IMG/VR virus record: IMGVR_UViG_3300043254_000051 | Span: 1 to 37,999 of that record | Source: a virus | Length of the DNA stretch: 37,999 nt | Direction: 5' to 3' (one strand) | Shown: in pieces, positions 16,113 through 37,999 of the stretch | Numbering within the stretch: position 1 is the stretch's first letter | How the letters are laid out: the number at the start of each line of letters is the position of its first letter | Position numbers and translations under genes: made by a program | The notes under the pieces: model-generated | What the model saw: only the letters and a program-made list of their open reading frames with translations | What the model was told of the DNA's origin: nothing | Database searches by the model: none

Positions 16113-16511
16113 TTATATGGAGTCCCAAGAAAAGGCGTCGCAACGCTCGCCTGTTTCCAGAAAATACAGCGCTATCTTTTTCAATTCGTCGAAGGTCAAT
16201 ATATTTCGCGCCGGCACCGGAGTGGGAGTATTTGCCGTGAGAAACTCTACATACCCGCTCATCAAACGTGGTTGAGGTGCAACGGCGACGAGGTACGGCG
16301 GATCGCCGTCAGTGCGACTATGTTGGACGCAACCAATCTCACCGCCCATCCCGATCATAAGCTCGAATCCGTTATCGCCCGAGAATCGTCCGAAGAACGG
16401 AGCGTTGCTTCGCCTTCTGTTGAGCAAATCGACGAGCGATGCCTCGTCTGCAATAACCTCGCCATTCATTATATCAAATTTGTCCTGCTGATTGACATAT
16501 TTGATCTTCAT
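16113..16511 (-). CDS. Imm1-family immunity protein
   Basis: A 132-residue acidic protein whose ATG overlaps the stop of the deaminase gene (ATGA), as expected of a cognate immunity gene. The layout fits Imm1 (PF14430): a central FELMIGMGGEIGCVQ strand pair and a C-terminal ILTFDELKKIALYFLETGER segment ending in a Trp-containing motif (FSWDSI). Imm1 proteins are the known partners of SCP1.201/DddA-type deaminases, including DddI, which supports both calls. It should bind and block the deaminase in the cytoplasm. Confidence 0.82.
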   Translation of the reverse strand: MKIKYVNQQDKFDIMNGEVIADEASLVDLLNRRRSNAPFFGRFSGDNGFELMIGMGGEIGCVQHSRTDGDPPYLVAVAPQPRLMSGYVEFLTANTPTPVPARNILTFDELKKIALYFLETGERCDAFSWDSI

Positions 16512-17557
16512 GGACCGATGCCTCTAAATTTCACGACCTTACCGCTTGGGAGAACAACGTCTAATGTAGCGCCCGGTGGAAGCATCTTCGGTAGCAATTT
16601 GGTGCAGGTATCACATATGTCCGGATTATTTATGTAAAGGGTACCCTGCATGAGTTCTTGATCGCGCATAATAGCGGCAGCGTGGCCTTCTACGTGTGAC
16701 TTAGTAATCAAGTCGAATCCAGAGCTCTCCGGCGGCATATTTGCTGCCGGGCCATCATATCCGCTTTCCAGTTCAATCGGAGAATGGTTTGGGATATCGA
16801 GAATTCCAGAGGTCTTGCCTCCTGTGTATGGCGCCAGTTTTGGCGGTAGGCCGCCCGGAAATGGTAGCTTTGGTTGCGGTTCAACTGTATCGGGCGGTCC
16901 GGACGGCGCTTTCGCTGGAGCTTCTGGTGTCGGTAAAGGTTCGCTTGGAGGCGAAACCCGGGGCAACCCTCGCGGAAATGGAAGCTCAGGTGGTCCGCCT
17001 TCCCCGCCACCACCGCCAAACTCCGGTCTTTCCCAAGGCTTATGCCTGGGATCCATCATAACCGGCACGACGTTGGGAGCTTCGGGTGCCGTTGTCGCCG
17101 GCGCAAACCAACCGGGATTTGGCGGTTCACCGGCGCGCGGATGTTTTGCAGGATCCCAATTCGCTTTGAGCAAACGACTGCGGTGGAGCTCTGAAGCGCG
17201 CCGCATAATGTCGTCGGCGGATTCGACGCCTTTCGCGAGCGATGGCGGGTTGGGGAATTGCATCTGCACAGTGGCAATCGCGGCTATCGCGAGATCGCCG
17301 CGATTGAGAGCGTTTGCAATGATCGCTAGTGCGCTAGCCTTTGTCGTGACATCGATCGGAAGCCGGTAGCGTGTCGTCAGTTCATGGTTGAGCTCGGTAA
17401 CCGGCCGAACGGTCCACCAGTTGCCCGCGCCACCAATGTTCGCGCGCTCAAGCAGCGGCACGCCGCCGGCAAAAGCACCTTGCGCATCGCACGAAATGCC
17501 ACCGTCATCCCCGGTGGCCGAAAGCGAAAACGCGCGCAATCCTCGCAACGTGAGCAT
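16508..17557 (-). CDS. SCP1.201/DddA-like cytosine deaminase toxin
   Basis: A 349-residue polymorphic toxin. The C-terminal domain (about 260-349) has the deaminase active-site pattern: His288 and Glu290 in SHVEGHAAA, and Cys315 and Cys318 in NPDICDTC, followed by KMLPPGATLDVVLP. This is the SCP1.201-like layout, whose best-known member, DddA, deaminates cytosine in double-stranded DNA. Residues about 1-155 form a helical pre-toxin region ending in DPAKHPRAGEPPNPGWFAP, and 155-250 is a Pro/Gly-rich linker. This N-terminus differs from the MKPPLPRT module of the other toxins. ATG 17557 is preceded by GGAG at good spacing. All four zinc and catalytic residues are present, so the enzyme may be active. 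The Imm1 gene follows directly. Whether it prefers single- or double-stranded DNA or a free nucleotide cannot be told from sequence. Confidence 0.85.
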   Translation of the reverse strand: MLTLRGLRAFSLSATGDDGGISCDAQGAFAGGVPLLERANIGGAGNWWTVRPVTELNHELTTRYRLPIDVTTKASALAIIANALNRGDLAIAAIATVQMQFPNPPSLAKGVESADDIMRRASELHRSRLLKANWDPAKHPRAGEPPNPGWFAPATTAPEAPNVVPVMMDPRHKPWERPEFGGGGGEGGPPELPFPRGLPRVSPPSEPLPTPEAPAKAPSGPPDTVEPQPKLPFPGGLPPKLAPYTGGKTSGILDIPNHSPIELESGYDGPAANMPPESSGFDLITKSHVEGHAAAIMRDQELMQGTLYINNPDICDTCTKLLPKMLPPGATLDVVLPSGKVVKFRGIGP

Positions 17558-17613
17558 GCGGTCGTCTCCGTTCGGTCTTTGCGGATGCAAAAAGGAAAGC
17601 CCCGGCGCTAATC

Positions 17614-18087
17614 TCAGAGGATTGCTTCGCCGACCGCCTCGCTCAATCCCCCAGCAATGTCCTCCGCCATCTCCGCCAACGACGACCGCAGATAAGACCG
17701 CTCCGGCGTCGTCACCGCCGGCAGGTTCACCCGTGCCGCGAAAACCCGCTTACCGCCCACCACGAAGGCGAGCGCCTTGGCTTTGTCCGGCACGATCTCG
17801 TGCGGCGGAATGGTGCCGCCGAATTCCTGAATCGCGGCGTATTTGACGTCGCCGGATGTGCCGATGCGGACCGAGACGTCGGTCGACGATTCGTCGACCG
17901 ACGCGATGATCGAGCTCGCCAGCGCGCCGCTCCGCATATTGAGCACGCCGCCGGAAAGCTTCTGCTGGATCTTCGCTTCCAGCGCCACGGCAAGCACGTT
18001 GGCCTTGCTCGCGAGCGCCTGGCGCACCCGGTCGGGCATGCCGGCAAGGCTGGCGCTGTAATCGTCGCGCAGATCGAGCTGAAACAT
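17614..18087 (-). CDS. HK97 gp10-like neck / tail completion protein
   Basis: A 157-residue protein whose ATG overlaps the stop of the connector gene (ATGA). An N-terminal helix (residues about 15-45), then a SGALASSIIAS segment, a KYAAIQEFGGTIPPHEIVP segment and the C-terminal YLRSSLAEMAEDI are typical of HK97 gp10-like proteins that sit at the head-tail joint. No defects seen. Confidence 0.85.
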   Translation of the reverse strand: MFQLDLRDDYSASLAGMPDRVRQALASKANVLAVALEAKIQQKLSGGVLNMRSGALASSIIASVDESSTDVSVRIGTSGDVKYAAIQEFGGTIPPHEIVPDKAKALAFVVGGKRVFAARVNLPAVTTPERSYLRSSLAEMAEDIAGGLSEAVGEAIL

Positions 18088-18917
18088 CACGCCCCCACCA
18101 CGCTGCGATACGGATCGAGCGAGGCGCGGACGAAATCCGGAATATCCTTCAGGCTGTACGACGCCGTCTGCTGGCCCTGCACGGTCTGCGCGCTCTGGCC
18201 GACGCGAGTGCGGTAGCGATAGCGTTCCGCCACCCATTCGATACAGGCATTGTTGATCGCGGCCGGAATAAAGCCGTAGGAAATCAGCACCGCGGCGCCG
18301 GCATCGGCGGCCGCGAACGTGTACACGCCGTTGGCGACCGCATATTCGCCCGCGGCCGGATTGCTCGCCACCGCCACAAGCGGAGCGCCGTTGGCGTAAG
18401 TGACGCCGGCATCGCTGGCCCACGGCCCGAGCGGCGCCGCCGCCGCGACGCTATACGGTCCCGGCGAAGCCGGCACGCTCGCCGCTTCGTTCTCGACCGC
18501 ATAGCCGGCCGAGTAATCGACCACGACGTTTTGCCGGCCCTTGCGAAAGTATGTGCGAAACACATCGAGCGCCTGCGGCCGGCCGGGCGGCAAGCCGTCC
18601 CAGGATTCGAGCAAATAGCCTTTGGCGGACGGCATACCGACCGGCGCGGCCGCAGGCACGACGGCCGTGTCGATCAACAACGTGACGACTTGCAGCACCG
18701 GATAATGGCGCAGGAACAGGCGCGTCTTGTCGTTGCCGTCGAGCCACTCCATGAACAGCCGCGGCGTCAATGACGGCCGGCCGAGATAAGCGGTGATGGC
18801 GCCGCTCACATCGGTGATCAGGCGCGCGATCAGCGCGTCGTCCGACGTGCCTATGCCGCTCGAGCCGGCGAGCCAGGTTTTGACGTCGGCAAGCGTGGCG
18901 AGATCGGATGCGGCCAT
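18087..18917 (-). CDS. Head-tail connector (gp6-like) with inserted decoration domain
   Basis: A 276-residue protein with the N-terminal ATLADVKTWL and the SGAITAYLGRP region of phage gp6-like head-tail adaptors, and the usual C-terminal VAERYRYRTRVG and SYSLKDIPDFV helices. It is longer than a normal adaptor because residues about 150-215 are an insert (YANGAPLVAVASNPAAG, YAVANGVYTFAAAD, AAVLISYGF) closely related to the module inside the tail tube protein at 14721-15461. ATG 18917 is chosen because it begins the conserved fold; a longer open frame upstream overlaps the small head gene and looks spurious. Confidence 0.85.
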   Translation of the reverse strand: MAASDLATLADVKTWLAGSSGIGTSDDALIARLITDVSGAITAYLGRPSLTPRLFMEWLDGNDKTRLFLRHYPVLQVVTLLIDTAVVPAAAPVGMPSAKGYLLESWDGLPPGRPQALDVFRTYFRKGRQNVVVDYSAGYAVENEAASVPASPGPYSVAAAAPLGPWASDAGVTYANGAPLVAVASNPAAGEYAVANGVYTFAAADAGAAVLISYGFIPAAINNACIEWVAERYRYRTRVGQSAQTVQGQQTASYSLKDIPDFVRASLDPYRSVVGA

Positions 18918-19263: not shown

Positions 19264-19818
19264 CTAACAGATGTCGACAAAATAAAAATGTCCGAATGCG
19301 TGGGATTCGACATGAAGGTCGAGCCGAAGATTCTTGGTTCTTTCCTTCCAGTCCTCAGATAGCGCATCGGACATTATCGTATCGCCCTCATCATAGGCCA
19401 ACCCGGTGTTGCAGGGTGTGCTGCCCGACCACCGCCACACGGTAAATTTCGGCTCCGGCAGCTTCGATATTTCATCGAGGTAATAAGGGTACGAAGCAAA
19501 AAGATGAATGTAGTCGCCGGCCCTCTGGCCGCCGGGCCAGGCGAAATCAAGACACAATATCACGGCGATCACGCTTAACGGCAACACGAGGGTCGATACC
19601 AGCCGGCGCCAAGCTTGCTCATAGAGCCATACCGCGCACAGTGTGACGGCCAGCACCACCACCCCCACCCAGAGCGTGAGGATCGCTGAAGCCACCATTG
19701 GCGGCAAAATGAGCCGCCCGAACCAAACGAGGACACAAGCTATCGGAAAGGCAACGGCGAGGATGGCTGGCCAATAAAGGATTCGATCGCGACCTTCGCC
19801 TTGCACTTCGAACCTCAC
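19264..19818 (-). CDS. Membrane immunity protein of the orphan toxin tip
   Basis: A 184-residue protein with four hydrophobic segments (starting at RILYWPAILAVAFPIACVLV) and a C-terminal soluble part with WKERTKNLRLDLHVES and FGHFYFVD. It belongs to the same family as the proteins at 30786-31319, 31405-31689 and 32889-33137. All have an LYWP first membrane segment and, where not truncated, an AWRRL(V/L)S(T)...LPLSV turn. Every well-preserved copy follows the same kind of toxin C-terminus, so immunity to that toxin is the likely role. The GTG start at 19818 lies next to the toxin stop. A membrane immunity protein suggests that the toxin acts in the membrane or periplasm. Confidence 0.7.
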   Translation of the reverse strand: MRFEVQGEGRDRILYWPAILAVAFPIACVLVWFGRLILPPMVASAILTLWVGVVVLAVTLCAVWLYEQAWRRLVSTLVLPLSVIAVILCLDFAWPGGQRAGDYIHLFASYPYYLDEISKLPEPKFTVWRWSGSTPCNTGLAYDEGDTIMSDALSEDWKERTKNLRLDLHVESHAFGHFYFVDIC

Positions 19819-20220
19819 TCATCGCTTCGATCGAACGCGCCCGGACTCATATAGATCGTAGCCCCTCAGATTATCCTCAATATCTTGTTTGGTCGAGTGC
19901 ACGTAAGATTCATCCATCATTTCGCTGGGACCAAATTTGGATTTAAGTGAGGCGTAAAAGTCCGCAAACGCCAGGGCATCCTCCCTGCTGACGCCGGCCG
20001 CAGCCATGAAAATACCCGTAGCGATGCTCGTATAGTGGCGGTAATCGCGAACATAGTGTGAGTCGAAGCGTTCGGCGTCCAAAGAGCCGCCATGGATGAA
20101 TGGAGCCAATTGCGAAGCAATTTTCGCCGCCAGACCGGCCATAGCGCTCGGCTCCAATAGGCCGGCCGCCGCCTGCTTATTGAATTGATGGATATTCGCA
20201 GCCAAGGAATGAGCGGCCAT
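19819..20220 (-). CDS. Orphan toxin C-terminus (membrane-immunity type)
   Basis: This frame encodes the same C-terminal domain as the toxin at 31697-32788 (shared pattern: FDAERFD, VRDYRHYTSIATG, FMAAAGVSRED, then VEDNL/IEDNL and GYDLYESGR), but it has no MKPPLPRT module or linker. Homology begins at about 20235, right after the DUF2019 gene. The first ATG is 20220, preceded by a purine-rich GGAAGCGGGG, so a 133-residue orphan toxin could be made. It is followed directly by its membrane immunity gene. It looks like a displaced older tip pushed downstream when the HNH cassette arrived. The catalytic function of the domain is unknown to me. Confidence 0.65.
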   Translation of the reverse strand: MAAHSLAANIHQFNKQAAAGLLEPSAMAGLAAKIASQLAPFIHGGSLDAERFDSHYVRDYRHYTSIATGIFMAAAGVSREDALAFADFYASLKSKFGPSEMMDESYVHSTKQDIEDNLRGYDLYESGRVRSKR

Positions 20221-20261
20221 CCCCGCTTCCGCGTATTTTTCCGGAAATGACTTCTGCGCCG

Positions 20262-20633
20262 CTATTTCGGGACAAATATGCCGCGATCGAGGCTCACAAG
20301 GCACATGCCGGCATCGCCTGCATATGGCTGCCGGCCCCAAGCCTCAATGGCCTGAAGCATTTTCCGAGCAGCCTCTGGCGCAACAGCGAGTGTCGTCTTG
20401 GCCGCCATCAAACGAACCCACAAATTCGGGTGGTCGAAAAGGGTGAGCAGCGCTCGCCGCTGATCGCCGGGTCGCCGTTTCAATTCCTGCTTAACTGCGT
20501 TCATTTGCAAATAAAGACGGTTATATTTTGCATTGTCGTCGTCGAACACCGCCTTATCTTCCTCGATGCCGAGCGCTGCGAAGCGCTCGACCAATTGAGC
20601 GATGGTGAGATTGTCAAGATCGGTATCTTTCAC
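20262..20633 (-). CDS. DUF2019-like immunity protein of the HNH toxin
   Basis: A 123-residue protein with the DUF2019 pattern: LVERFAALGIEED, YNRLYLQMNAVKQELKRR, HPNLWVRLMAAKTTLAVAP and a C-terminal GDAGMCLVSLDRGIF. The GTG start at 20633 overlaps the stop of the HNH toxin as GTGA, the arrangement expected of a cognate immunity gene. DUF2019 proteins are helical repeat-like proteins often found behind toxin genes. A longer frame upstream exists but starts inside the toxin and is less likely. Confidence 0.75.
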   Translation of the reverse strand: MKDTDLDNLTIAQLVERFAALGIEEDKAVFDDDNAKYNRLYLQMNAVKQELKRRPGDQRRALLTLFDHPNLWVRLMAAKTTLAVAPEAARKMLQAIEAWGRQPYAGDAGMCLVSLDRGIFVPK

Positions 20634-21505
20634 GGCCTGAGCACTCCAAACCTGATTAGGGCATCGATGCCAACGCGGCGGCGATCCTCCCAACTTTTTC
20701 CCCTCAGATAATCCCTCGGCGACAGTTCTCCGAATTCGTCATTCCCTCTGCCATACCAACCGTTGATCTGCCAGTGCTTCAGGGTCGGAATGCGCACCAA
20801 GTTATCGGGCCCATCGATTTTCTCATCAGAGAACCCCTCCTTCCTCGCAGGAGTTTGCTCGACGATATGATGGATATCGTATCCAACTTGTGGATTTAGC
20901 ACATCCTGCTGTAGCTCTATTAGGGTCTTCGGTGGCGAAAGATAGGCACGTATGTACGGTAACGCCCGGGTTGTCATCCAAAAAGCCGCTTGCAAGAGTC
21001 GGAGATATCTTCCCGCTACCCCTTTTCCTGCCGTCGCCAGCCAATACGCAGCAGCTTTGATAAAGGCATTGAGACCGTTTGCGGTCGCCGGAGGCCGTGC
21101 CGGAATTGGCGGTGGCTCTTCAAGCGGCGGACCTTGGTTGTGGCCCACGCCGGGCGGATCATTTGCCGCGTATTGACCGCCCGGCTTCCACGTATTGTCG
21201 GGCGTCGCATCGGAAATGACGGCGCCATCTCCGCCCTCTCTTGTCCACTGTCCGCCATCGGAATTGCCTGCAGGCACACGTGGCTCGTCGGGACTAAAGC
21301 CGGCCTTGCGCAAATCAAGAATTAGCTCGTGAACGATTTGCGCGATCAGCTCGCTTTCAGTGTGCGTTGTTGCAGGTTCTGTTTGCCGCCTAACTTGCTC
21401 ATCCTGTTTCGGCGCGGCGAGCACGCGGATGGCTTTCGCGATCTCAAGCTGTACATGCAGCGTTCGTGGAACAGCGCTCAGGATACGTGGAAGTGAGGGC
21501 TTCAT
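20630..21505 (-). CDS. HNH-nuclease polymorphic toxin on the MKPPLPRT-type module
   Basis: A 291-residue protein. The N-terminus (MKPSLPRILSAVPRTLHVQLE, residues 1-30) is the shared module of this locus. The linker PDEPRVPAGNSDGGQWT is at about 72-88, and GVGHNQGPPLE, a motif common before Rhizobiales toxins, is at 119-129. A hydrophobic helical stretch spans 145-190. The C-terminus (205-291) is an HNH/HHH-type nuclease: His212-His213 in YDIHHIVEQ, Asn235 in DNLVRIP and His244 in LKHWQI. This would cut nucleic acid in the target cell; the hydrophobic stretch might help membrane passage. DUF2019 immunity follows with a 4-base overlap. No defects seen, so this may be the active cassette of the capsid island. 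Confidence 0.82.
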   Translation of the reverse strand: MKPSLPRILSAVPRTLHVQLEIAKAIRVLAAPKQDEQVRRQTEPATTHTESELIAQIVHELILDLRKAGFSPDEPRVPAGNSDGGQWTREGGDGAVISDATPDNTWKPGGQYAANDPPGVGHNQGPPLEEPPPIPARPPATANGLNAFIKAAAYWLATAGKGVAGRYLRLLQAAFWMTTRALPYIRAYLSPPKTLIELQQDVLNPQVGYDIHHIVEQTPARKEGFSDEKIDGPDNLVRIPTLKHWQINGWYGRGNDEFGELSPRDYLRGKSWEDRRRVGIDALIRFGVLRP

Positions 21506-21685: not shown

Positions 21686-21777
21686 TCACCCCGCAGCGAT
21701 ATTGGCAATCACCGCCATGGACGGCGAGAAATAGTGCTGCAGCACCTCGTCGGCATAAACGCCAATTTCGCAGCAGT
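21686..21777 (-). pseudogene. Displaced remnant of the capsid 3' end (older copy)
   Basis: About 28 codons plus a stop match the end of the major capsid gene: GVYADEVLQHYFSPSMAV then IANIAAG. Differences from the intact gene include Ser for Pro, Ile for Thr, and TGA instead of TAA. It is more diverged than the copy at 23234-23510, suggesting an older event. It directly follows a small immunity-like gene and precedes the HNH toxin gene, so it marks a cassette boundary. Confidence 0.82.
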
Positions 21778-21797: not shown

Positions 21798-22040
21798 CTA
21801 CCTGTATTTTCCGTGCCTGGCGATACTCGCTTCCACCTCGACATTTAACTCCGGATGCGCCGCCAACGCCTTGTTGATCAGCGCAACGCCAATCGCGTCG
21901 ATCGCAGCTGCGATCCCACGCGAATAATCCTTGTATTCTTCGGGACTGCATCGCTGCTTCAGAATCCCCAGAAACTGCTGCAGTTCTGAGCTGCTGCGAA
22001 ACGCAGTTTTGATCATATCTCGCGCTAAATCGACATCCAC
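21798..22040 (-). CDS. Small helical protein, possible second immunity gene
   Basis: An 80-residue helical protein (LARDMIKTAF, ELQQFLGILKQRCSPEEYKDY, then an AIDAIGVALINKALAAHPEL segment). It starts with GTG and GAGG upstream. It lies between the Imm32-like gene and the capsid remnant, in the immunity part of the His/Trp toxin cassette. I do not recognise the family firmly; small helical proteins of this kind occur beside rhizobial toxin genes. It may be a spare immunity gene of a lost toxin. Confidence 0.55.
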   Translation of the reverse strand: MDVDLARDMIKTAFRSSSELQQFLGILKQRCSPEEYKDYSRGIAAAIDAIGVALINKALAAHPELNVEVEASIARHGKYR

Positions 22041-22090
22041 GTGCGACCTCAGCCAAGGATTGCCCTCAGGCGCCCATCCGTCCGCGCCCG

Positions 22091-22306
22091 TTAGTCACCG
22101 CCCGTTGTAATGATGACCTCGCCGATGGCTTCCTTTCCCCAGGGATTTTTCTCGCTGAGCTCACGTCCTCCATTCGAGGGAGTCCGGAGGTGAAGGTGGC
22201 CGCTGGATCGAACCTTCTCCAGAGCCGCGATCAAGGTCGCCAACCCTTCGCTGTCACAAGAAATCTGAATCGCTCGCCCTTCGTTCGCAAGCTCAAAACT
22301 CAGCAT
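22091..22306 (-). CDS. Imm32-like immunity protein
   Basis: A 71-residue protein with ISCDSEGLATLIAALEKV, then GHLHLRTPSNGGRELSE and a C-terminal GEVIITTGGD. This resembles the small Imm32 group (a DxEGL helix, an H-x-HL strand and a final hydrophobic strand); the match is from memory and moderate. ATG 22306 is preferred to an upstream TTG because GGAG lies six bases before it. As the first gene after the His/Trp-rich toxin, it is the likely cognate immunity protein. Confidence 0.6.
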   Translation of the reverse strand: MLSFELANEGRAIQISCDSEGLATLIAALEKVRSSGHLHLRTPSNGGRELSEKNPWGKEAIGEVIITTGGD

Positions 22307-22405
22307 CTGATTCTCCAGTCGCGGCGGTGACAATTTAGTAAGATACTTTGAATTTAGTCGATTTAATAAGCCACACGGTCGCTGGCAATCCCTGCCGTAA
22401 ATTTT

Positions 22406-23104
22406 TTATCCTGGAATTAATACGGGTGCGGTTGGAAAGACTGGGAATGGTTCGATTGGCAGAATGGGCTCGGGGATGACTGGAATAAACGGATTGGGCG
22501 TCCAAGGGGGCTGGTCGCCATTGGGATCAGACAACGACTGATCCGACTCTGGTTGTCTCTTTTGTGTGGGCCAGGGTTTCTTCGAGTTTGGAGGCCATCT
22601 GTCCCCATCGTCCGTGTCCCAGTGCCGCCAGTGAAAGTCATCCTCCGGATGCACGGTGAACCTTCTACCATCCGGATCTTCCAGCCAGTATGTACCGTTC
22701 GGCCATTGGCCCTGTTTCCAGGTATTTGGATCGTAGCCTGGCGGAGGCGGAGGAAAATACGGACCACCTGCAACTACTATCTCACCATCCTTAGGTCTGA
22801 ACTGTCCTCCCTTGCCGTCGGGTGTTCGTGCCGGCCAGCCGGGATGTACTGGATCATCGACCGCCGCCTTCGTGGCCTTCGCGCTTACCGCGCGAGATCG
22901 TGAGCGCGTCAATAGCCACTGGCGACATGCCTCGCGGAGCTCTCGTCCGATTTGCTCGTCCAGCGCGCTGATCTGCGCCTTTTCCGCGCACGACGGAGGT
23001 TGCACGTGCTTGTCCAAGAGCGTGTGGATTGCCTTGACGATCTCGAGCTCCACGTGCGGCAATCGCGGCACGGCGCTCAAGGTGCGCGGCAGCGGTGGTT
23101 TCAT
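22406..23104 (-). CDS. Polymorphic toxin with His/Trp-rich C-terminal domain
   Basis: A 232-residue protein. Residues 1-35 are the shared module (MKPPLPRTLSAVPRLPHVE), 40-70 a helical part, and 84-104 a linker of the variant form DDPVHPGWPARTPDGKGGQF. The C-terminal domain (about 122-183) has aromatic and histidine motifs: YDPNTWKQGQWPNG, TVHPEDDFHWRHWD (His152, His158, His161) and RWPPNSKKPWPTQKR. Such compact His-rich tips are usually nucleases, but I cannot name the family. After it comes a Pro-rich tail (190-232), an unusual end for a toxin. Followed by the Imm32-like gene. Confidence 0.68.
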   Translation of the reverse strand: MKPPLPRTLSAVPRLPHVELEIVKAIHTLLDKHVQPPSCAEKAQISALDEQIGRELREACRQWLLTRSRSRAVSAKATKAAVDDPVHPGWPARTPDGKGGQFRPKDGEIVVAGGPYFPPPPPGYDPNTWKQGQWPNGTYWLEDPDGRRFTVHPEDDFHWRHWDTDDGDRWPPNSKKPWPTQKRQPESDQSLSDPNGDQPPWTPNPFIPVIPEPILPIEPFPVFPTAPVLIPG

Positions 23105-23233
23105 GTGCCTGATCTCGTGAGGACGTCATTGTCGGCATGACCCGGCAATCCACACGGCGACAAAGCCACATGGATGCACGGGTCACGCCAACGCTTGACG
23201 GACGAGGAAGAGCCGAGAAAATGCGGGGCAGAC

Positions 23234-29267: not shown

Positions 29268-29395
29268 TGATTCATGACTCCCGATCGAAGGACTTTGTCT
29301 ACAAACTCTCGAGCGGCGTCTAACTCGAGCGCCGCTGATTCACCTGAATGGAGAGCGGTGGTTCCCGCCGTGGAATTCGGCCTGTACAGCTCGCA
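29264..29395 (-). pseudogene. Remnant 3' end of a toxin gene
   Basis: In frame, this encodes CELYRPNSTAGTTALHSGES then an AREFVDKVLRSGVMNQ end and a stop, clearly homologous to the end of the toxin at 29639-30616 (ELYRLN, VHSGES, AKKILQSGVMGQ). The upstream part of the gene is gone, replaced by the intact immunity gene at 29430-29642. It keeps the ATGA overlap with the following immunity gene. It is a scar of an older allele of the same toxin type. Confidence 0.85.
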
Positions 29396-29429
29396 ATCCA
29401 ACGGCTGCATGCACACACTGCGGCCTACG

Positions 29430-31319: not shown

Positions 31320-31390
31320 CGCCTGCTCTGCCGAATGCGTCCAGACTCATACAGATCGTAGCCCCTTAGGTTATCTTCGACACCCCGCTG
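31316..31390 (-). pseudogene. Remnant 3' end of a membrane-immunity-type toxin
   Basis: About 24 codons (GVEDNLRGYDLYESGRIRQ and a stop) match the end of the toxin at 31697-32788 (DVEDNLKGYDLYESGRIRQ). Upstream, the sequence runs directly into the truncated immunity gene at 31405. The stop overlaps the next immunity gene. It marks an exchange in which a newer toxin plus part of its immunity gene replaced most of an older toxin gene. Confidence 0.85.
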
Positions 31391-31404
31391 TGCCGTCGGA
31401 TCAC

Positions 31405-31689
31405 TCAGCGCCACCAGACAAAAACCACGACGAGAACACTCAACGGCAAGGTTACCGCAGAGAGCAACCGACGCCACGCGCGATCGCATATCGCCGAAAT
31501 GCAGGCTACGACACCGGCCCCCGCTGATATCAGCCAACACAAAAGTATTTCGAGCGGCGCAAAGTCCAAACCTGGTCCTGTGCGGTCGTACGTGATGAAA
31601 AGCCAAGACCAAAAGACAGCCAGTATAGTCGGCCAGTAGAACACCCGATCCTTGATCGGGATGATTTGATCATCGCTCGCGGCTTGCAT
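31405..31689 (-). pseudogene. Membrane immunity gene, truncated at the 3' end
   Basis: Starts eight bases after the toxin stop (ATG 31689, MQAASDDQIIPIKD) and contains the first two to three membrane segments and the AWRRLLSAVTLPLSV turn, but ends after VVVFVWWR. The soluble half present in the sister copies (residues about 100-180) is missing and the sequence runs into the toxin tail remnant. The 95-residue product may be inactive; protection could then come from the full-length copy just downstream. Confidence 0.72.
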
Positions 31690-31696
31690 ATCGGAC

Positions 31697-32788
31697 TTAT
31701 TCCCTACTTTGCCGAATTCGTCCGGACTCATAGAGATCATAGCCCTTTAGATTATCTTCGACATCCCGTTTGGACAAGTGTGGGTAGACTTCGTCCCTCG
31801 GATCACCAGGATCAAATGTAGAAAACTCCTTAGCATAAGCGTCCGCAATTGCGAGGAAATCCTCCCTGCTGACTCCAGCGGCCGCCATAAAGACGCCGGT
31901 CGCAATACTCGTATAGTGGCGATAATCGCGAACATAGTTGTAATCGAACCGTTCGGCATCGAAAGAACCACCATGGAGAAATGGCGCCAATTCCTGACTG
32001 ATTTTCGCCGTCAATCCGGCCAAAGCTTGTTCGTTAGACTCATTTGGCTCGTTAAGCTCGTTCTGCACCGCCTGCTTGAATAAACGAATGTAGTCGGCCA
32101 AGTGCGACGCGGCCCCTGCCTGTGCATATTCTTCCGGCGGCAGGTCATCCGGCCGAAGCATTGGCTTGCCTTGATCATCGAGAATCGGCCGGCCCGAACT
32201 GTCCAGGAATTGCAGCGGATGCTTCGGATGATCGGCCGGAATTTCGCCCGCCCCAATGGGGTGATAGGTTCGCAGTTGAGGTGGCACCAAATTGGCCAGG
32301 CGGCGCCGCAAATCTTCCAGGTGTCGTGAGAAAAAATCGCTTACCGATCCGCTTCCGCCGTCTTTGGTCCACTCTCCTCCGCCGGGACTGTACTTCGGCT
32401 TACGCGGCTCTTCAGGGTCATAATCTTTGACTAGAGTTCGCTTTGCGATGCGGGGCGCGCGTCGCGCGTCCGCTCTTTTTTCCTCCTCCGCATTCACCTC
32501 AATCGGCACATAGCCGGTGGCGGGCGCCATCGGCCGGCTGGAGCTACGCTCTTTCAGCGCTTTCCGCACCTCCGCCTTTGCCAGCGCCAGGAATTCCTCA
32601 CCGGCCCTGCGAATGTCGCGGGGGAGCGCCTCCAAGTCGCGGCGGATCGCGGCGATCTCCGCGCGGCGCTGCCGCAGCAGTTCGTCCTCGTCCGGCCCGG
32701 CGAGCGTACGGATCGCTTTGGCGATTTTGAGTTGCACGTGCAGCGCCCGGGGCACGGCGCTTTCGATGCACGGCAGCGGTGGTTTCAT
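31697..32788 (-). CDS. Polymorphic toxin of the membrane-immunity type
   Basis: A 363-residue protein. Residues 1-75 are the shared module (MKPPLPCIESAVPRALHVQL, then the charged EDELLRQRRAEIAAIRRDLE helix). Residues about 88-100 (PATGYVPIEVNAE) match the C-terminal part of the portal (TATGYVPIEANAG), so the gene is a chimera with portal sequence. The linker is a variant (DYDPEEPRKPKYSPGGGEWT). The C-terminal domain (about 240-363) has HGGSFDAERFD, VRDYRHYTSIATG, FMAAAGVSRED and GYDLYESGR. The immunity family is membrane-bound, so an envelope or periplasm target is likely, but the activity is unknown to me. Related tips are found at 19819-20220 and 31316-31390. Confidence 0.72.
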   Translation of the reverse strand: MKPPLPCIESAVPRALHVQLKIAKAIRTLAGPDEDELLRQRRAEIAAIRRDLEALPRDIRRAGEEFLALAKAEVRKALKERSSSRPMAPATGYVPIEVNAEEEKRADARRAPRIAKRTLVKDYDPEEPRKPKYSPGGGEWTKDGGSGSVSDFFSRHLEDLRRRLANLVPPQLRTYHPIGAGEIPADHPKHPLQFLDSSGRPILDDQGKPMLRPDDLPPEEYAQAGAASHLADYIRLFKQAVQNELNEPNESNEQALAGLTAKISQELAPFLHGGSFDAERFDYNYVRDYRHYTSIATGVFMAAAGVSREDFLAIADAYAKEFSTFDPGDPRDEVYPHLSKRDVEDNLKGYDLYESGRIRQSRE

Positions 32789-32827: not shown

Positions 32828-32888
32828 TGAAGCTCTCGCCGGGCACGAACTTGGCGCGGCAGCGCTTGGCGAGGTCGCCGGCGAAGCC
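32828..32888 (-). pseudogene. Portal gene scar 3 (short)
   Basis: About 20 codons that read GFAGDLAKRCRAKFVPGE, the same portal segment as in scars at 34283-34428 and 35930-36080 and upstream of the window's right edge. It is fused in frame with the truncated immunity gene on one side (at ERAW/GFAG) and lies just before a MKPPLPRT toxin on the other. Confidence 0.75.
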
Positions 32889-33255: not shown

Positions 33256-33648
33256 CTAAGATACGGACGCTGCCAGGGGATTTGAGGCGTAATGTGAACT
33301 TACAAAAAGCAACGCCTTCTTTTCGGCGTCAGTTAATTTGAACCGCTCTGGCTCTCGGTCGGGTCGGTATTTCTGATACTTTCGATCCAGTTCCAGGAAA
33401 ATATGGCGGATTTCCGCGGGAAGGGGAGCCACTGAATCTATCACGCACGGAACGCCTTTATCGTCAGCCACTGTTACGCCGGTCCTTCGGTCAAACTCAA
33501 GATTTTCCTGTGTGGTCACGCGCCTGGCTTGAATGGTGGTTTGGTCGATGGACAGTACCAAACAAATCAAACTCGCCCCGCTAGGGGATTCAGCATGAAA
33601 AATATCGCCGATATCAAGTTTGGCCAGCAACGTTTTGCGATCAAACAT
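33256..33648 (-). CDS. Probable immunity protein of the Cys-rich toxin
   Basis: A 130-residue protein starting eight bases after the toxin stop. The first half is a beta-rich domain (LDIGDIFHAE, SLICLVLSIDQTTIQARRV, LEFDRRTGV) and the second half is helical (AEIRHIFLELDRKYQKYR, LTDAEKKALLFV). I do not recognise a named immunity family; the role is inferred from position after a toxin of the same series. Confidence 0.6.
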   Translation of the reverse strand: MFDRKTLLAKLDIGDIFHAESPSGASLICLVLSIDQTTIQARRVTTQENLEFDRRTGVTVADDKGVPCVIDSVAPLPAEIRHIFLELDRKYQKYRPDREPERFKLTDAEKKALLFVSSHYASNPLAASVS

Positions 33649-33655: not shown

Positions 33656-34249
33656 TCATCTCCGCAGAAGATAGGGACTCAAAGTCAGAACCTTCTCCTT
33701 GGACGGCTCATTCTGTATACCTAACACTTTGACCGCGCAATCCATGCAAAGCGCGTGACCGCTTACGCTATACATTGCTGTTGCGCCATAACTGCCTCCG
33801 CTTTGACATCCTCCTGCGAAGCCTTCACAGCGCAGGTCTCCGCCTGCAGCAAGTTGAACATTGGGGACGTTGGATTGATCAGCGCCATCGGCAGAGCCGC
33901 CCCTATTGGAGGAGCCCCTTACATTATCGACGGAACCGCTTGCGCCTTCGGGCGTCCACTGCCCACCATCGGGACCGCCGGCGGGCACGCGCGGTTGGTC
34001 GGCGTTGTATTTTTTCAGCGCCGCCCGCAACTCCGCTTTCGCCAGCGTTGCGGCCGCCGCGAAGGCTTTGTGTAGGTCGCGGGAAAGCGCCTCCAAATCG
34101 CGGCGAATCGCGGCGATCTCCGCGCGGCGCTGCCGCAGCAATTCATCCTCGTTCGGCCCGGCGAGCGTGCGGATCGCTTTGGCGATCTCGAGCCGTGCGT
34201 GCAACGTCTGCGGCACGGCGCTCAAGGTGCGCGGCAGCGGAGGTTTCAT
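33656..34249 (-). CDS. Polymorphic toxin with small Cys-rich C-terminal domain
   Basis: A 197-residue protein: shared module at 1-90 (MKPPLPRTLSAVPQTLHARL, charged helices), linker ADQPRVPAGGPDGGQWT at about 94-110, a Ser/Gly-rich spacer, then a compact C-terminal domain of about 60 residues with CEGFAGGCQSGGSYGATAMY and ALCMDCAVKVLGIQ. The four cysteines could hold a zinc ion or disulfides. Activity unknown. Residues 1-110 are almost the same as in the barnase-type toxin at 35075-35896, so these two cassettes share a recent source. Confidence 0.68.
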   Translation of the reverse strand: MKPPLPRTLSAVPQTLHARLEIAKAIRTLAGPNEDELLRQRRAEIAAIRRDLEALSRDLHKAFAAAATLAKAELRAALKKYNADQPRVPAGGPDGGQWTPEGASGSVDNVRGSSNRGGSADGADQSNVPNVQLAAGGDLRCEGFAGGCQSGGSYGATAMYSVSGHALCMDCAVKVLGIQNEPSKEKVLTLSPYLLRR

Positions 34250-34282
34250 CCTTGAATCCTTGCATTGGTTATTGCCAGCCGC

Positions 34283-34600
34283 GGCACCGAAAACGCAAAG
34301 CAGATGATGCGGGCGAGCCACTCGTCGAAATCGTCCTTGTGCTGCGGCTCTTTGGTCTGGACGACCTTATCCGCCGTCTCGCCGGGCCCGAATTTTGCCC
34401 GCCGGCGCTTGGTCAGGTCGCCGGCGAAGCCCCCTCCCTAACCCTCCCCCGCATGCGGGGGAGGGTTAGGGAGGGGGCATCCTGTAACCGATTGATCTGG
34501 TCCGGCGTCCAGCCCTGCGGCAGGCCGATCAGCGCGTCGGGGATCGAGCCTTCGCCGTAGTAGTCGAACTGCTGGAGTGTAAGAAAGCGCTCGATCTCTC
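34283..34600 (-). pseudogene. Portal gene scar 2, interrupted by a palindrome
   Basis: Two portal segments. The upstream one (34479-34600) reads LTLQQFDYYGEGSIPDALIG then LPQGWTPDQINRLQ; the downstream one (34283-34428) reads GFAGDLTKRRRAKFGPGETA and FDEWLARIICFAFSVP. Between them is a 50-base perfect palindrome that shifts the frame and replaces part of the gene. The downstream segment ends where the next MKPPLPRT toxin's leader begins (AATAACCAATGCAAGG). It is the longest portal fragment in the island. Confidence 0.85.
34429..34478. repeat. Perfect 50-base palindrome (RPE-like)
   Basis: Each arm is 25 bases, centred on GCATGC, composed of CCCTCCCTAACCCTCCCC-type sequence; I checked the base pairing position by position. 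It sits inside portal scar 2. Such GC-rich palindromes that can be read as protein (PLPNPP/LTLPRMRG) are scattered in Rhizobiales genomes. Here it interrupts coding debris and so arrived after, or during, the loss of the gene. Confidence 0.85.
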
Positions 34601-34616: not shown

Positions 34617-35069
34617 TCATTCTCGAGAGCGCTCCGGTTTCAATTGCCGCCGAAGATTATCGGCTATCGAGCGAAGTTTGGGATCAGGCCCTTCGTATTG
34701 CACTGCCTCCACCGCATCGCGAAGCTTGGCCTCTTGATCATCAGACGCGCCACCATCGTTTGCGGACGCAATTACAATCGAGACTTCAACGTCATTGCCG
34801 TTGTGCCGTTTTCGATAAATGCGTCCTTCCGCGAGCATACCCCTTACCAATTCGACATGGTCATGAACCTCTTTCGGCGCCGCTGAAAGGCCAGAAATTC
34901 GGACGGTATACGGCGGTTCCACAGCATTGATTCCGCCCAAAATCATCGAATCGACCAAAGCGTCAGGGCTCTGGCCGTGCCGAGCCGGCGCACCAATCGA
35001 GGCGAGGAGCGCATGATAAAAATCGCGCACCGTTTTCCATTTTGTAGCATCAAGCTCGATGGTTCGCAT
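34617..35069 (-). CDS. Barstar-like immunity protein
   Basis: A 150-residue protein whose N-terminal half fits barstar (PF01337): an initial strand MRTIELDATKWKTVRDF, helix YHALLASIGAP, and HGQSPDALVDSMILG, the barnase-binding helix-loop region. The C-terminal half (VEVSIVIASANDGG, then a helical tail) is longer than classical barstar. It starts five bases after the stop of a barnase-like toxin gene, an exact match of partner families. It appears intact although the toxin gene is broken. Confidence 0.82.
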   Translation of the reverse strand: MRTIELDATKWKTVRDFYHALLASIGAPARHGQSPDALVDSMILGGINAVEPPYTVRISGLSAAPKEVHDHVELVRGMLAEGRIYRKRHNGNDVEVSIVIASANDGGASDDQEAKLRDAVEAVQYEGPDPKLRSIADNLRRQLKPERSRE

Positions 35070-35074: not shown

Positions 35075-35896
35075 CTACTCGCCGCGCGGGTTCAGGTTGA
35101 GACGATAGAAACTGCGGTAATGATTGTTGGTGTAATACATCGCTCCAATACCAGCATCAATCACGATTCTGCCAACGCCTCTGCCGGCGCCAAGTCCCGG
35201 TACATCGAAAGCAATATACCCGCTCGCGCTAGGAGGTTGAACAGCGCCTGTCTCATAGTGCGGTCGGTTCTCGTAGGCATGCGGATACAACGTGCTGAAG
35301 TCTTGATTTAATATAAGAGTCAATGCGTCTGCAATATTTTGCTGTTCATCCGGCAATATCGGACCGTTCAATCCTTTTGGATCCAACGGATCCTTTCCTG
35401 GCGGACGTGCAATCGTAAACCCGCGAGGCGTGACCTCGTTCTGTGCAAGCCGCGGACCGTTGTCAGAAGCGTTAGCCTCGCCGGTACCGGTCTCATCCGT
35501 CAGCGTGCCGGTATCTATTGCGGCGTATCGTTTGGGCGACTCCGACCCAACGCCCGCGGCGTTAGAACTATCTGCCGACTATCCGTTGCCACCGTCGCTC
35601 GTCCACTGCCCGCCATCGGGATTGTCGGCGGGCACGCGCGGTTGGTCGACGCTGTATTTTTTCAGCGCCGCCCGCAACTCCGCTTTCGCCAGCGTTGCAG
35701 CCGCCTCGAAGGCTTTGTGCAGGTCGCGGGAAAGCGCCTCTAAATCGCGGCGGATCGCGGCGATCTCCGCGCGGCGCTGCCGCAGCAGTTCGTCCTCGCC
35801 CGGCCCGGCGAGCGTGCGGATCGCTTTGGCGATCTCGAGGCGCGCGTGCAAAGTCTGCGGCACGGCGCTCAAGGTGCGTGGCAGCGGAGGCTTCAT
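35075..35896 (-). pseudogene. Barnase-type toxin on the MKPPLPRT module, broken by an amber codon
   Basis: From ATG 35896 the frame gives the shared module (MKPPLPRTLSAVPQTLHARL), linker SVDQPRVPADNPDGGQWT, then an in-frame TAG at 35579-35581. Past the stop the same frame stays open to 35075 through a spacer (RYAAIDTGTLTDETGTGE, closely matching the portal fusion's RYAARDTGTLTDETPGT) and a barnase/RNase N1-like C-terminus: GRGVGRIVI then YYTNNHYRSFYRL. Alignment by eye keeps the barnase Arg83, Arg87 and His102 equivalents, but the catalytic Glu73 position is Ala (YIAFDV). So the toxin looks both interrupted and catalytically impaired, unless amber readthrough or a TTG restart at 35386 is used. 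The barstar gene follows. Confidence 0.82.
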
Positions 35897-35929
35897 CCCT
35901 AAATCCTTGCATTGGTTGTTGCCGGTCAC

Positions 35930-36080
35930 GGCACCGAAAACGCAAAGCAGATGATGCGGGCGAGCCACTCGTCGAAATCGTCCTTGTGCTGCGGCTCCTT
36001 GGTCTGCACGACTTTGGCCGCGGTCTCGCCGGGCACGAATTTGGCGCGGCGGCGCTTGGCCAGGTCGCCGGCGAAGCGGC
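35930..36080 (-). pseudogene. Portal gene scar 1
   Basis: About 50 codons of portal sequence: RFAGDLAKRRRAKFVPGETA, KVVQTKEPQHKDDFDEW and LARIICFAFSVP. The last 108 bases (35930-36037) are nearly the same as the window's right edge (37892-37999), which belongs to the real portal gene. It ends at GGTGCCG, and the leader of the barnase-type toxin follows (CAACAACCAATGCAAGG). The frame upstream is not portal. Confidence 0.88.
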
Positions 36081-36103: not shown

Positions 36104-36460
36104 CTACGTTTCCGGCTTCTCGTGGCGCGGCCGAGCCCCGGCCTTGGTAGTCAAATCACGGTCGACTTGTTCCCAGATTGTCGTCAGAAATAGACGCGCT
36201 CCGTCTATCCCTTGGTGCCCGACGATCCAGAAGTTGCTGTCGGTCGAATTCCAAAGTTCCTGCAAATCCGCTTCGTCCGGCTTCTGCAGCAGCAAATCGG
36301 CCAGAAATTCTCTTAAAACGATTTTGCCCCCACGATCGAAGCGCAATAAAACCGTCGCAATCCATTCTCGTTCGTCCTTTTTACCGCGCGGGCCTTCCGC
36401 GCCAAATAGCACAGCGAACGAATAAAATTCGCGAGGCGCCTTGATCTTCGTATTTTTCAT
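36104..36460 (-). CDS. Possible immunity protein in the portal-RNase cassette (second)
   Basis: A 118-residue protein with EFYSFAVLFGAEGPRGKKDE, a WIATVLLRFDRGGKIVLREFL segment and DSNFWIVGHQGIDGARLFLTT. It looks like a small alpha/beta protein. I cannot name the family. It lies second after the portal-RNase fusion and before portal scar 1, a typical place for an immunity gene of the current or a previous toxin. Confidence 0.58.
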   Translation of the reverse strand: MKNTKIKAPREFYSFAVLFGAEGPRGKKDEREWIATVLLRFDRGGKIVLREFLADLLLQKPDEADLQELWNSTDSNFWIVGHQGIDGARLFLTTIWEQVDRDLTTKAGARPRHEKPET

Positions 36461-36517
36461 AAAAGAACTCTACCCACACTGGATCAAGTTCGATGATTTG
36501 CATGATGACCAAGCAAC

Positions 36518-36748
36518 CTATAGCTGCCCCTTCGCTTTCAGCTTTTGCGTGAAGTCGCACAGGGCATCGTACTGCTCCTCGGTCTCGATATAGCCAAATT
36601 CTCCCACCGGGGACGTAATAGGATGAAGATTAACACCAATACCGTCCAGGAATCTTTTTACCTCTTGATACACCTGCTCATTGGGCCATGTGAATCTCGT
36701 TTCGACTCCGTCGGGCGCGGTATAGAGGACCATTTTCAAGTTCGTCAT
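36518..36748 (-). CDS. Possible immunity protein of the portal-RNase fusion (first)
   Basis: A 76-residue protein (MTNLKMVLYTAPDGVETRFT, VYQEVKRFLDGIGVNL, then YIETEEQYDALCDFTQKLK). ATG 36748 is preferred over an upstream GTG at 36757. It begins about 50 bases after the stop of the fusion gene, so it is the first candidate for the cognate immunity protein of the RNase domain. The family is not recognised. Confidence 0.58.
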   Translation of the reverse strand: MTNLKMVLYTAPDGVETRFTWPNEQVYQEVKRFLDGIGVNLHPITSPVGEFGYIETEEQYDALCDFTQKLKAKGQL

Positions 36749-36799
36749 CGCTATCACCGGTCAATGAGTTGCCTGCACCAGTTTATTGAGTTCGCGTTG

Positions 36800-37999
36800 T
36801 CACTTCTGCTCCACGGGACCAGTGCGAGGATAGGCTGTAACAATTCTGTACCCGCGGGGCCTGGTCGGGTCATATTGTATCACTACGCCAACTCCATCGG
36901 TCACTCGCATATAAGGCTCGGTATCGGGGCTGGGCCGATACAGTTCCCGGCCAGTCACAGACCCGGGAGTGTCGAGCGTGATAAGCCACTGATTCCTCAC
37001 AATTCCACTGGCAACAGCAGCGACCTCGGCAACATTCTTCAGCGCGCCGAGTGCGCTATTGACCAAATAGTTGGCACTTTCAATCGAGTCAAATGATCCC
37101 TCGCGCCGATCGTACACACCGGCAGAGCGCCAAGTCTTGCCAATCATTTGCGCTAATAGTTCCACATCGGATTTTCCGACATGCTCGCTGATAGCGTGTC
37201 CTCTACCGATAGGCGCTTCTTCGTCGCGCAAGTCGACGGGTTTTTGTTGCGACGAATCATTGGCCGCCAACTGGGTTTTGGGTTCCGCCGAATCGTCATG
37301 TGCATGCGAATTCGATGGTGTACCTGGCGTCTCGTCCGTCAGCGTGCCGGTATCCCGCGCGGCGTATCGCGTGGGATGTTCCGACCCATCGCCTGCGGCA
37401 TCCGAGGAGCTTAATGGCGATCCGCTGCCACCATCGCCCGTCGTCCGCTGCCCGCCGCCGGGATTGCCCGCCGCCACACGCGGCTGGTCGGAGCTATATT
37501 TTTGGACGGTCGGCGCGCTTTTTGCGCCCTGCCCGTTCCCACCGGCCGTCTGTTGTCCCGCATTGGCCTCAATCGGCACATAGCCCGTAGCGGTGAGCAC
37601 CATCGGGCGGTCGGCGGCGGCGTTGTCGAAGGGGTCGAGGCCGAGGGCGTCGCGCATCTCGTTGAGCGTGAGCGCACCGACTTTCAGCCGGCCTTCGAGC
37701 ACCGTCTCGGGGTCGCCTTCGTCCTCGTCGAGCCAATGCAGCTCGAGATCGGGCGAGGCGAATTCCTCCGCCACGATCTCGTCGATCAAATCCTTGACCC
37801 ACTCCTTGGTCGGCTCGAGGCCCTCCTCCTCGGCCTGCGCCGAATGGTTCTCCGCGGTGGCGCGGTTCATCACCTTGGTGGCCCATTGCGGCGGCACCGA
37901 AAAGGCAAAGCAGATGATGCGGGCGAGCCACTCGTCGAAATCGTCCTTGTGCTGCGGCTCCTTGGTCTGGACGACTTTGGCCGCGGTCTCGCCGGGCAC
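36800..37999 (-). CDS. Portal protein C-terminus fused to a CdiA-CT RNase A-like toxin (partial)
   Basis: The gene runs off the right edge; 399 codons are visible (numbered from the edge). Codons 1-145 are phage portal sequence (FDEWLARIICFAFSVPPQW, MNRATAENHSAQAEEEGLEP, then the RLKVGALTLNEMRDALGLDP segment typical of portal C-termini). Codons 168-186 are the toxin linker (YSSDQPRVAAGNPGGGQRTT). After a low-complexity spacer, codons 265-399 fit the bacterial CdiA-CT RNase A domain: His273 in HVGKSDVELLAQ, and Thr388/Tyr390 in RIVTAYPR. In Yersinia kristensenii CdiA-CT the active residues are His, Arg 11 later, Thr and Tyr (from memory). The Arg position here is Gln284, which may weaken the enzyme. 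The fusion is seamless in frame. A portal with a toxin tail would be present in about 12 copies per virion. Confidence 0.85.
   Translation of the reverse strand: MPGETAAKVVQTKEPQHKDDFDEWLARIICFAFSVPPQWATKVMNRATAENHSAQAEEEGLEPTKEWVKDLIDEIVAEEFASPDLELHWLDEDEGDPETVLEGRLKVGALTLNEMRDALGLDPFDNAAADRPMVLTATGYVPIEANAGQQTAGGNGQGAKSAPTVQKYSSDQPRVAAGNPGGGQRTTGDGGSGSPLSSSDAAGDGSEHPTRYAARDTGTLTDETPGTPSNSHAHDDSAEPKTQLAANDSSQQKPVDLRDEEAPIGRGHAISEHVGKSDVELLAQMIGKTWRSAGVYDRREGSFDSIESANYLVNSALGALKNVAEVAAVASGIVRNQWLITLDTPGSVTGRELYRPSPDTEPYMRVTDGVGVVIQYDPTRPRGYRIVTAYPRTGPVEQK

What the first reader, a model, noticed from the sequence alone, without database searches (positions are those of the whole stretch)
16113..37999. 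Polymorphic toxin/immunity islands built into a phage head operon
Between the portal, protease, capsid, connector and tail terminator genes there are at least seven toxin-type genes with different C-terminal domains (RNase A-like, barnase-like, HNH, DddA-like deaminase, and three of unknown activity), each followed by one or more candidate immunity genes. The families match in known pairs (barnase/barstar, SCP1.201 deaminase/Imm1). The insertions fall at three places in a single structural operon. MuF-type phage toxins are known as polymorphic toxins of temperate phages; an array anchored on portal and capsid genes, with scars of exchange, is not something I know to be described. Function as virion-delivered weapons or as superinfection or competitor control is inference.
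Basis: partly seen in the sequence, partly recalled or inferred. Interest (0 to 1): 0.93.

Follow-up and report, generated by a model that had tools for sequence, protein, structure and literature searches.

The report
Phage portal proteins carrying swappable toxins
A family of bacterial viruses fuses interchangeable toxin domains to the protein ring through which its DNA passes, keeps older toxin and antidote genes as a growing array between its head genes, and shares the same toxin-linker motif with virus-derived gene transfer particles of related bacteria; this would make the virus head a carrier of rapidly changing antibacterial weapons.

Summary
The window is a metagenomic phage contig. 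Its portal gene is fused in frame to an RNase A-type toxin (PF18431). Behind portal, capsid and the HK97-gp10-like neck gene lie 7 more toxin genes, each with its own partner gene (barnase/barstar and DddA/Imm1 among them).

In about 100 related contigs the portal tails fall into ten sequence clusters. Portals at least 95% identical carry different tail families in 7 of 9 pairs. Between cassettes lie leftover pieces of portal (74), capsid (33) and gp10 (18). Two series of close relatives show how these arise: a new toxin joins the structural gene and the old one, still attached to the old gene's 3' end, is pushed downstream, as in CDI and Rhs loci.

Some outgroup portals are portal-MuF fusions, so toxins seem to have replaced MuF. 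A linker (KYNPDQPRVPAGNPDGGQWT) joins carrier and toxin. All 124 distinct copies in this lineage map to the head/neck gene region. The same linker-toxins occur inside RcGTA-type clusters in at least 16 of 37 linker-bearing genomes of the host order.

Virion packaging and delivery are inferred, not shown.

The parts
36800..37999 (-). portal protein C-terminal part (cut by record end) + variant linker + RNase A-type toxin tail
   Evidence: phage portal by homology to the L014 portal (phrog_2662); PF18431 at aa 267-391, E 2.7e-12; one uninterrupted ORF
36518..36757 (-). partner (candidate immunity) gene of the RNase A tail
   Evidence: downstream of the same toxin family in 7 of 9 loci
36104..36460 (-). 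second candidate immunity gene of the RNase A tail
   Evidence: within 900 b of the toxin in 2 of 9 loci
35929..36075 (-). leftover portal fragment (portal nt about 964-1110)
   Evidence: 95% identical to portal; repeat D4
35075..35896 (-). head domain (MKPPLPR...) + linker + barnase-type toxin; in-frame stop just after the linker
   Evidence: PF00545 E 2e-7; stop seen against intact L019 copy
34617..35069 (-). barstar immunity gene, intact
   Evidence: PF01337 E 1.5e-7; follows barnase in 6 of 7 loci
34278..34572 (-). leftover portal fragment (portal nt about 855-1114)
33656..34249 (-). head + linker + Cys-rich toxin of unknown family (also found as a portal tail in L165, L206)
   Evidence: head repeat D1; same family on portals
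33256..33648 (-). partner gene of the 33656 toxin
   Evidence: 5 of 5 loci
32834..32885 (-). leftover portal fragment
31697..32788 (-). head + portal-like linker piece + helical toxin with no known fold relative
   Evidence: AlphaFold pLDDT 90 on 29 homologues; no PDB match at E<=0.001
30786..31740 (-). two membrane-type partner genes (31405-31740, 30786-31319) of the 31697 toxin
   Evidence: none of 28 toxin copies lacked a listed partner downstream, nearly all of this membrane group
29639..30616 (-). head + linker + toxin of unknown family
   Evidence: head repeat; dN/dS 0.25-0.48
29055..29642 (-). two zinc-ribbon partner genes (29430-29642, 29055-29267), tandem paralogues
   Evidence: 5 of 5 loci; repeat D7
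27730..28746 (-). prohead protease
   Evidence: PF14550; phrog_9427
25990..27561 (-). major capsid protein
   Evidence: phrog_13692 E 2e-131; tblastn to phage major capsid proteins
25142..25873 (-). membrane protein, candidate partner of the lipase
   Evidence: position only; no family
23571..25010 (-). class 3 lipase with apparent signal peptide, first cassette behind capsid
   Evidence: PF01764 E 8.8e-6
23233..23510 (-). leftover 3' end of the capsid gene, stop codon included
   Evidence: 97% identical over 277 nt
22406..23104 (-). head + second linker type (HPGWPARTPDGKGGQFRP) + proline-rich toxin candidate
   Evidence: head repeat D2; partner in 3 of 3 loci
21798..22333 (-). 22091-22333 Imm32-like partner; 21798-22040 orphan partner
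   Evidence: PF15566 E 7e-4, below cut-off; 21798 family without a listed toxin in 6 of 7 cases
21690..21774 (-). leftover 3' end of the capsid gene
   Evidence: repeat D6
20630..21505 (-). head + linker + HNH-type nuclease toxin candidate
   Evidence: HH..N..H motif read by eye; DUF2019 partner in 27 of 36 copies
20262..20693 (-). DUF2019 partner (candidate immunity) gene
   Evidence: PF09450 E 1.4e-35
19264..20340 (-). remnant of a 31697-type toxin without head (19819-20340) and its membrane partner (19264-19818)
   Evidence: repeats D5, D10 with 31697
17614..18900 (-). head-tail connector and HK97-gp10-like neck protein
   Evidence: PF05135, PF04883; phrog_26
16508..17590 (-). third carrier N-terminus + DddA-like dsDNA deaminase
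   Evidence: PF14428 E 1.7e-13; same N-terminus with other C-termini in L013, L016, L017, L032, L063, L192
16113..16511 (-). Imm1 immunity gene
   Evidence: PF14430 E 1.3e-5; 7 of 7 DddA copies
14721..16034 (-). tail terminator (15588-16034) and tail tube (14721-15461)
   Evidence: phrog_8150, phrog_8234, both without a named function; roles inferred from gene order; right border of the third insertion site

Best explanation
This is a polymorphic toxin system whose carriers are virion head proteins. In an ancestor the portal was probably fused to a MuF domain (as in some outgroups). In this lineage that C-terminus was replaced by exchangeable toxin domains joined through a conserved linker. 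Further toxins sit on two other carrier N-termini (the MKPPLPR head behind portal and capsid, and a separate domain behind gp10). Each toxin travels with its partner gene. When two phages recombine, a new structural gene with its toxin and partner is joined into the resident copy. The resident gene's 3' end, with the old toxin and partner still attached, is displaced downstream. Repeated rounds build the array, and the partners kept in it protect against toxins of sister phages. Inferred steps: portal tails (about 12 per particle) lie inside the capsid as MuF proteins do, head-tagged toxins are packed too, and they are ejected with the DNA into the next cell, where they disable cells or resident phages lacking the matching partner. 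Shown: fusion, tip variation, displacement scars, pairing, purifying selection. Not shown: packaging, toxicity, neutralisation.
For: Portal-toxin fusions in most of 37 distinct full portals of the clade, ten tail clusters. At core identity >=95% 7 of 9 pairs differ in tail family, at 90-95% 47 of 67, below 85% 403 of 478. Outgroup portals L058 and L115 carry PF04233 MuF, L115 also PBECR3. Displacement at portal: L057 and L012 are 99.5% identical over 5,733 bases, but L057's full portal carries a tail that in L012 sits downstream on a portal fragment behind a full portal with another tail. Displacement at capsid: L017 has capsid-cassette Y, while L014 and L063 have capsid-new cassette-capsid 3' end-cassette Y, collinear with L017 across the fragment. 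All 33 capsid fragments come from the last quarter of the gene and none of 74 portal fragments begins in the first 500 bases. Fixed pairs: DddA-Imm1 7/7, barnase-barstar 6/7, 33656-33256 5/5, 29639-zinc ribbon 5/5, 31697 with a partner 28/28. dN/dS 0.07-0.48 in toxins and partners. All 124 distinct linkers map to the head/neck region or to contig ends beside it, none to tail intervals. The same linker-toxins follow terL, portal or protease in RcGTA-type clusters of at least 16 genomes.
Against: No mass spectrometry, no toxicity data, no transcripts. The window's barnase gene has a stop; about a third of toxin copies are damaged or lack an N-terminal part against about a fifth of partners (noisy, p 0.03). 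No integrase or serine recombinase was found in the 11-12 records of the clade searched, so lysogeny, and with it lasting immunity, is unproven; HTH_3 regulators were found in 5 of 12. A phage that poisons the cell it enters must also manage its own replication, which is unexplained. Linker-toxins also occur alone in chromosomes away from detected head genes.
Confidence: 0.62

Rival explanations
1. The toxins are virion-carried effectors for taking over the newly infected cell (RNA and DNA degradation, DNA editing), and the partners only shield the producing cell during assembly; competition between phages is secondary.
For: Nuclease-type activities dominate; MuF and portal fusions with PBECR and 2H domains have been read this way (PMC5512222); some outgroup portals carry MuF and PBECR3.
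Against: Rapid tip exchange and retention of displaced pairs fit toxin/immunity arms races better than a conserved takeover function; dedicated partner genes in fixed pairs.
Confidence: 0.2
2. The cassettes are addiction modules or selfish toxin-antitoxin genes that persist in the operon and are never packaged.
For: Toxin followed by antidote gene; many linker-toxin matches in host genomes lie away from detected head genes.
Against: In-frame fusion to the portal in full-length genes; restriction to the head region in phages and insertion behind head genes in RcGTA-type clusters are not expected of simple addiction genes.
Confidence: 0.1
3. Toxins are released by lysis as bacteriocin-like proteins rather than injected.
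For: The window holds a lipase with an apparent signal peptide among the cassettes.
Against: No receptor-binding or translocation domain was found on the toxins; carriers are head proteins.
Confidence: 0.05
4. The array is neutral debris of frequent recombination at sites where insertion does no harm.
For: Some toxins are broken, and scattered 5' break points point to unguided joining.
Against: Purifying selection on toxins and partners; most toxin copies intact with an N-terminal part (131 of 196); one conserved linker across 127 distinct sequences.
Confidence: 0.03

Closest known systems
MuF polymorphic toxins of temperate phages (Jamet 2017, PMC5576092; Zhang 2012, PMC3482391; Bxa, PMC11699363)
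   Same: Toxin domain at the C-terminus of a head protein next to terminase and portal, immunity genes downstream, polymorphic tips.
   Different: No MuF domain found in this clade's toxin carriers; the portal itself and two other N-termini carry the toxins; several cassettes at three sites; displaced copies with structural-gene remnants.
Portal or MuF fusions to PBECR and 2H domains (Iyer 2017, PMC5512222); portal-MuF fusion annotated in Arthrobacter phage Sonali
   Same: Portal protein with an extra domain at its C-terminus.
   Different: Described there as domain architectures; no immunity partners, tip exchange or arrays in the passages read.
CDI and Rhs loci with orphan toxin/immunity arrays (PMC4927057)
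   Same: New tip joins the carrier gene; the old toxin/immunity pair is displaced downstream with a piece of the carrier gene; tandem arrays.
   Different: The carrier is a phage head protein, three structural genes do it in one operon, and the PF00589 and PF00239 families were not found in the sampled records.
RcGTA-type gene transfer agents of Alphaproteobacteria
   Same: The same linker-toxin cassettes, several with DUF2019-type partners, sit behind terL, portal or protease in at least 16 genomes.
   Different: Other portal and capsid families (HK97-type); no portal fusion established there; most such clusters have no insert between protease and capsid.

Membership tests
Polymorphic toxin system | Conserved N-terminal carrier with variable C-terminal toxin domains | tested here: met
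   Ten tail clusters on portals, several shared with head-type genes; third carrier with several C-termini
Polymorphic toxin system | Cognate immunity gene directly downstream | tested here: met
   Fixed pairs by position; neutralisation itself not testable here
Polymorphic toxin system | Toxicity neutralised by the partner | not testable with these tools
   Needs expression assays
MuF toxin family | MuF domain (PF04233 superfamily) in the toxin carrier | tested here: not met
   No PF04233 in the window portal part or in the clade portals scanned, L011 and L061; met in outgroups L058, L115
MuF toxin family | Location in the packaging/head module next to the portal | tested here: met
MuF toxin family | Temperate phage | tested here: inconclusive
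   No PF00589 or PF00239 match in clade virus records; HTH_3 in 5 of 12; all records may be fragments
CDI/Rhs-like orphan arrays | Displaced toxin/immunity pairs that keep part of the carrier gene | tested here: met
CDI/Rhs-like orphan arrays | Carrier is a two-partner secretion or Rhs-repeat protein | tested here: not met
   Carrier is a phage portal (phrog_2662, PF04860)
RcGTA-type cluster (for L222/L231, not the window) | GTA_TIM protein, DUF2460 and phiJL001 gp84-type hub proteins with HK97-type portal, protease and capsid | tested here: met
   PF13547 8e-111, PF09343, PF09931; TIGR01537, TIGR01543

The most novel reading that the evidence does not exclude
The helix-plus-linker motif (KYNPDQPRVPAGNPDGGQWT) is a cargo tag or processing site by which head assembly of Hyphomicrobiales phages and of RcGTA-type gene transfer agents loads polymorphic toxins, so that phage particles and gene transfer agents deliver kin-selective toxins together with DNA.
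Probability: 0.35. Interest if true: 0.95.

Novelty: new variant of a known kind. Interest (0 to 1): 0.86.

Why it matters
If true, the phage portal is a fast-evolving toxin carrier. This extends polymorphic toxin biology from MuF to an essential virion protein and shows tip displacement working in viruses as in CDI and Rhs loci. Several partner families (DUF2019, the zinc-ribbon, membrane and 33256 types) become predicted immunity proteins. At least two toxin domains have confident models and no match in the PDB. The same cassettes in RcGTA-type clusters raise the testable possibility that gene transfer agents discriminate between kin and non-kin recipients.

Tried and rejected
Assembly artefact: rejected, since identical arrays recur in separate metagenomes. 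L057 arising from L012 by simple deletion between portal copies: rejected, because the 5' part of the portal is only 90% identical. Capsid-toxin fusion in L093: rejected, the long ORF lies in another frame. First tail clustering merged everything through the shared linker and was redone on C-termini. Site-specific integration at one point: not supported, 5' break points of the fragments scatter. Toxin decay versus partner retention: only weak (67% against 78% intact, p 0.03, noisy measure). PADLOC defence families: no match. Linker in 50,697 phage records: no match. A search for a linker variant around the DddA carrier printed nothing. Literature: no paper on portal toxin arrays or on toxin cassettes in RcGTA-type clusters found (open-access library only).
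Full report
WHAT IS IN THE WINDOW. The window is a 37,999-base virus record. One operon on the - strand runs from a portal gene (cut by the record's end) through protease, capsid, connector, neck protein, tail terminator and tail tube to tail genes. The portal ORF continues without a stop into an RNase A-type domain, PF18431. Behind portal come a barnase gene (with an in-frame stop just after its linker; an uninterrupted copy exists in L019) with an intact barstar, and three toxins without a family. Behind capsid come a lipase, a proline-rich candidate and an HNH-type gene with a DUF2019 partner. Behind the neck gene come DddA-like and Imm1. Six genes share the N-terminal head MKPPLPR..., and most share the linker KYNPDQPRVPAGNPDGGQWT or a variant. 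Direct repeats show leftover pieces of portal and of the capsid 3' end between cassettes.

RELATIVES. The capsid found 80 viral loci and 46 genome loci; the portal core found 76 loci. The hosts named in the genome records of close relatives are mostly Xanthobacteraceae, with Beijerinckiaceae, Rhodoblastus, Bradyrhizobium and Methylobacterium further out. In the close clade (capsid >=85%) the portal-protease interval exceeds 600 bases in 35 of 39 loci, capsid-connector in 29 of 40 and neck-terminator in 17 of 26. Other junctions rarely do: 7 of 58, 3 of 39, 2 of 25. In outgroups the neck-terminator interval never does (0 of 36).

PORTAL TAILS. There are 85 distinct full portals, 37 of them in the clade. 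The 35 clade tails of 80 aa or more form ten clusters, including RNase A, barnase, a restriction-endonuclease-like type (by motif), two Cys/His types and a GHH type; two small clusters may be truncated tails. At core identity >=95%, 7 of 9 pairs have different tail families; at 90-95%, 47 of 67; below 85%, 403 of 478. Tips are thus nearly unlinked from the portal's own descent. Outgroup portals either end without a tail, carry another tail, or carry a MuF domain (PF04233 in L058 and L115; L115 also PBECR3), so the clade's tails most likely replaced MuF (inference).

HOW THE ARRAY GROWS. The extra fragments come from the 3' side of the structural gene: 74 portal fragments in 33 loci, none starting in the first 500 bases; 33 capsid fragments in 23 loci, all from the last quarter and most ending at the stop codon or 90 bases beyond. 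gp10 remnants are mostly from its 3' end as well. L057 and L012 share 5,733 bases at 99.5%. L057's full portal bears a tail that in L012 is found downstream on a portal fragment, behind another full portal with a different tail. Because the upstream portals are only 90% identical, L012 is best read as having gained a foreign left arm. At capsid, L017 shows capsid-cassette Y; L014 and L063 show capsid, a new cassette, a capsid 3' piece and cassette Y, collinear with L017 across the piece. Break points scatter, so unguided joining is more likely than site-specific insertion.

PAIRING AND SELECTION. DddA-Imm1 7/7, 33656-33256 5/5, 29639-zinc ribbon 5/5, 31697 with a partner (nearly all membrane proteins) 28/28, barnase-barstar 6/7, RNase A-36518 7/9, HNH-DUF2019 27/36. 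dN/dS is 0.07-0.48 for toxins and partners and 0.03-0.12 for structural genes. A third carrier N-terminus behind gp10 bears DddA, HNH-like and other C-termini.

LINKER AND HEAD-REGION RESTRICTION. Across 127 distinct linkers of the common length, both glycines of GGQW, the glycine of PAG, the arginine of PR and the tryptophan are 98-100% conserved. In the clade, 124 distinct occurrences map to intervals from terL to the neck gene or to contig ends beside them, none to tail intervals. No record of the phage collection holds the linker.

GENE TRANSFER AGENTS. In 298 genomes of the host order, 37 match the head-linker query. In at least 16 of these a match lies directly behind terL, portal or protease of an RcGTA-type cluster. 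In G279 the cluster is confirmed by GTA_TIM (8e-111), DUF2460 and the gp84-type hub and HK97-type portal and protease; G306 and G031 also have g12 and g13 homologues; the others are assigned by homologous head genes only. Of 29 clusters where it could be judged, 25 have capsid directly behind protease, so the insert there is a minority, derived state.

STRUCTURES. The 31697 toxin domain (pLDDT 90) and the commonest portal tail (core around 90 or above) have no PDB match at E <= 0.001.

WHAT IS NOT SHOWN. Packaging, ejection, toxicity, neutralisation, lysogeny and transcription. That portal C-termini and MuF proteins lie on the inside of the capsid rests on general knowledge of SPP1- and HK97-type phages; SPP1 gp7 in the portal complex is cited in PMC5576092.

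Noticed in passing
L222 (G279:C11:522000-541000) with L231: Linker-toxin and partner cassettes behind terL, protease and before capsid of an RcGTA-type cluster; similar inserts in at least 16 genomes of the order.
   Followed up: partly
window 23571-25873: A class 3 lipase with apparent signal peptide and a membrane protein form the first cassette behind the capsid, without head or linker.
   Followed up: no
window 35075-35386: Read by eye, the barnase-like domain keeps the Arg and His of the active site, but the usual catalytic Glu position appears to be Ala (GYIAFDVPG).
   Followed up: no
L226, L228: Single linker-toxins (with a DUF2019-like partner in L226) stand in chromosomes near uvrC-type genes with no head genes detected nearby; could be loaded in trans.
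   Followed up: no
L107, L110, L121, L111: Rhodoblastus-type prophage portals (about 50% core identity) also end in extended, toxin-like tails.
   Followed up: no
L114-L117: Methylobacterium prophage portals of 1,079-1,510 aa; L115 combines portal, MuF and PBECR3.
   Followed up: partly
window 21798-22040: A small gene family mostly without a recognised toxin upstream (6 of 7 cases), possibly an orphan immunity gene.
   Followed up: no
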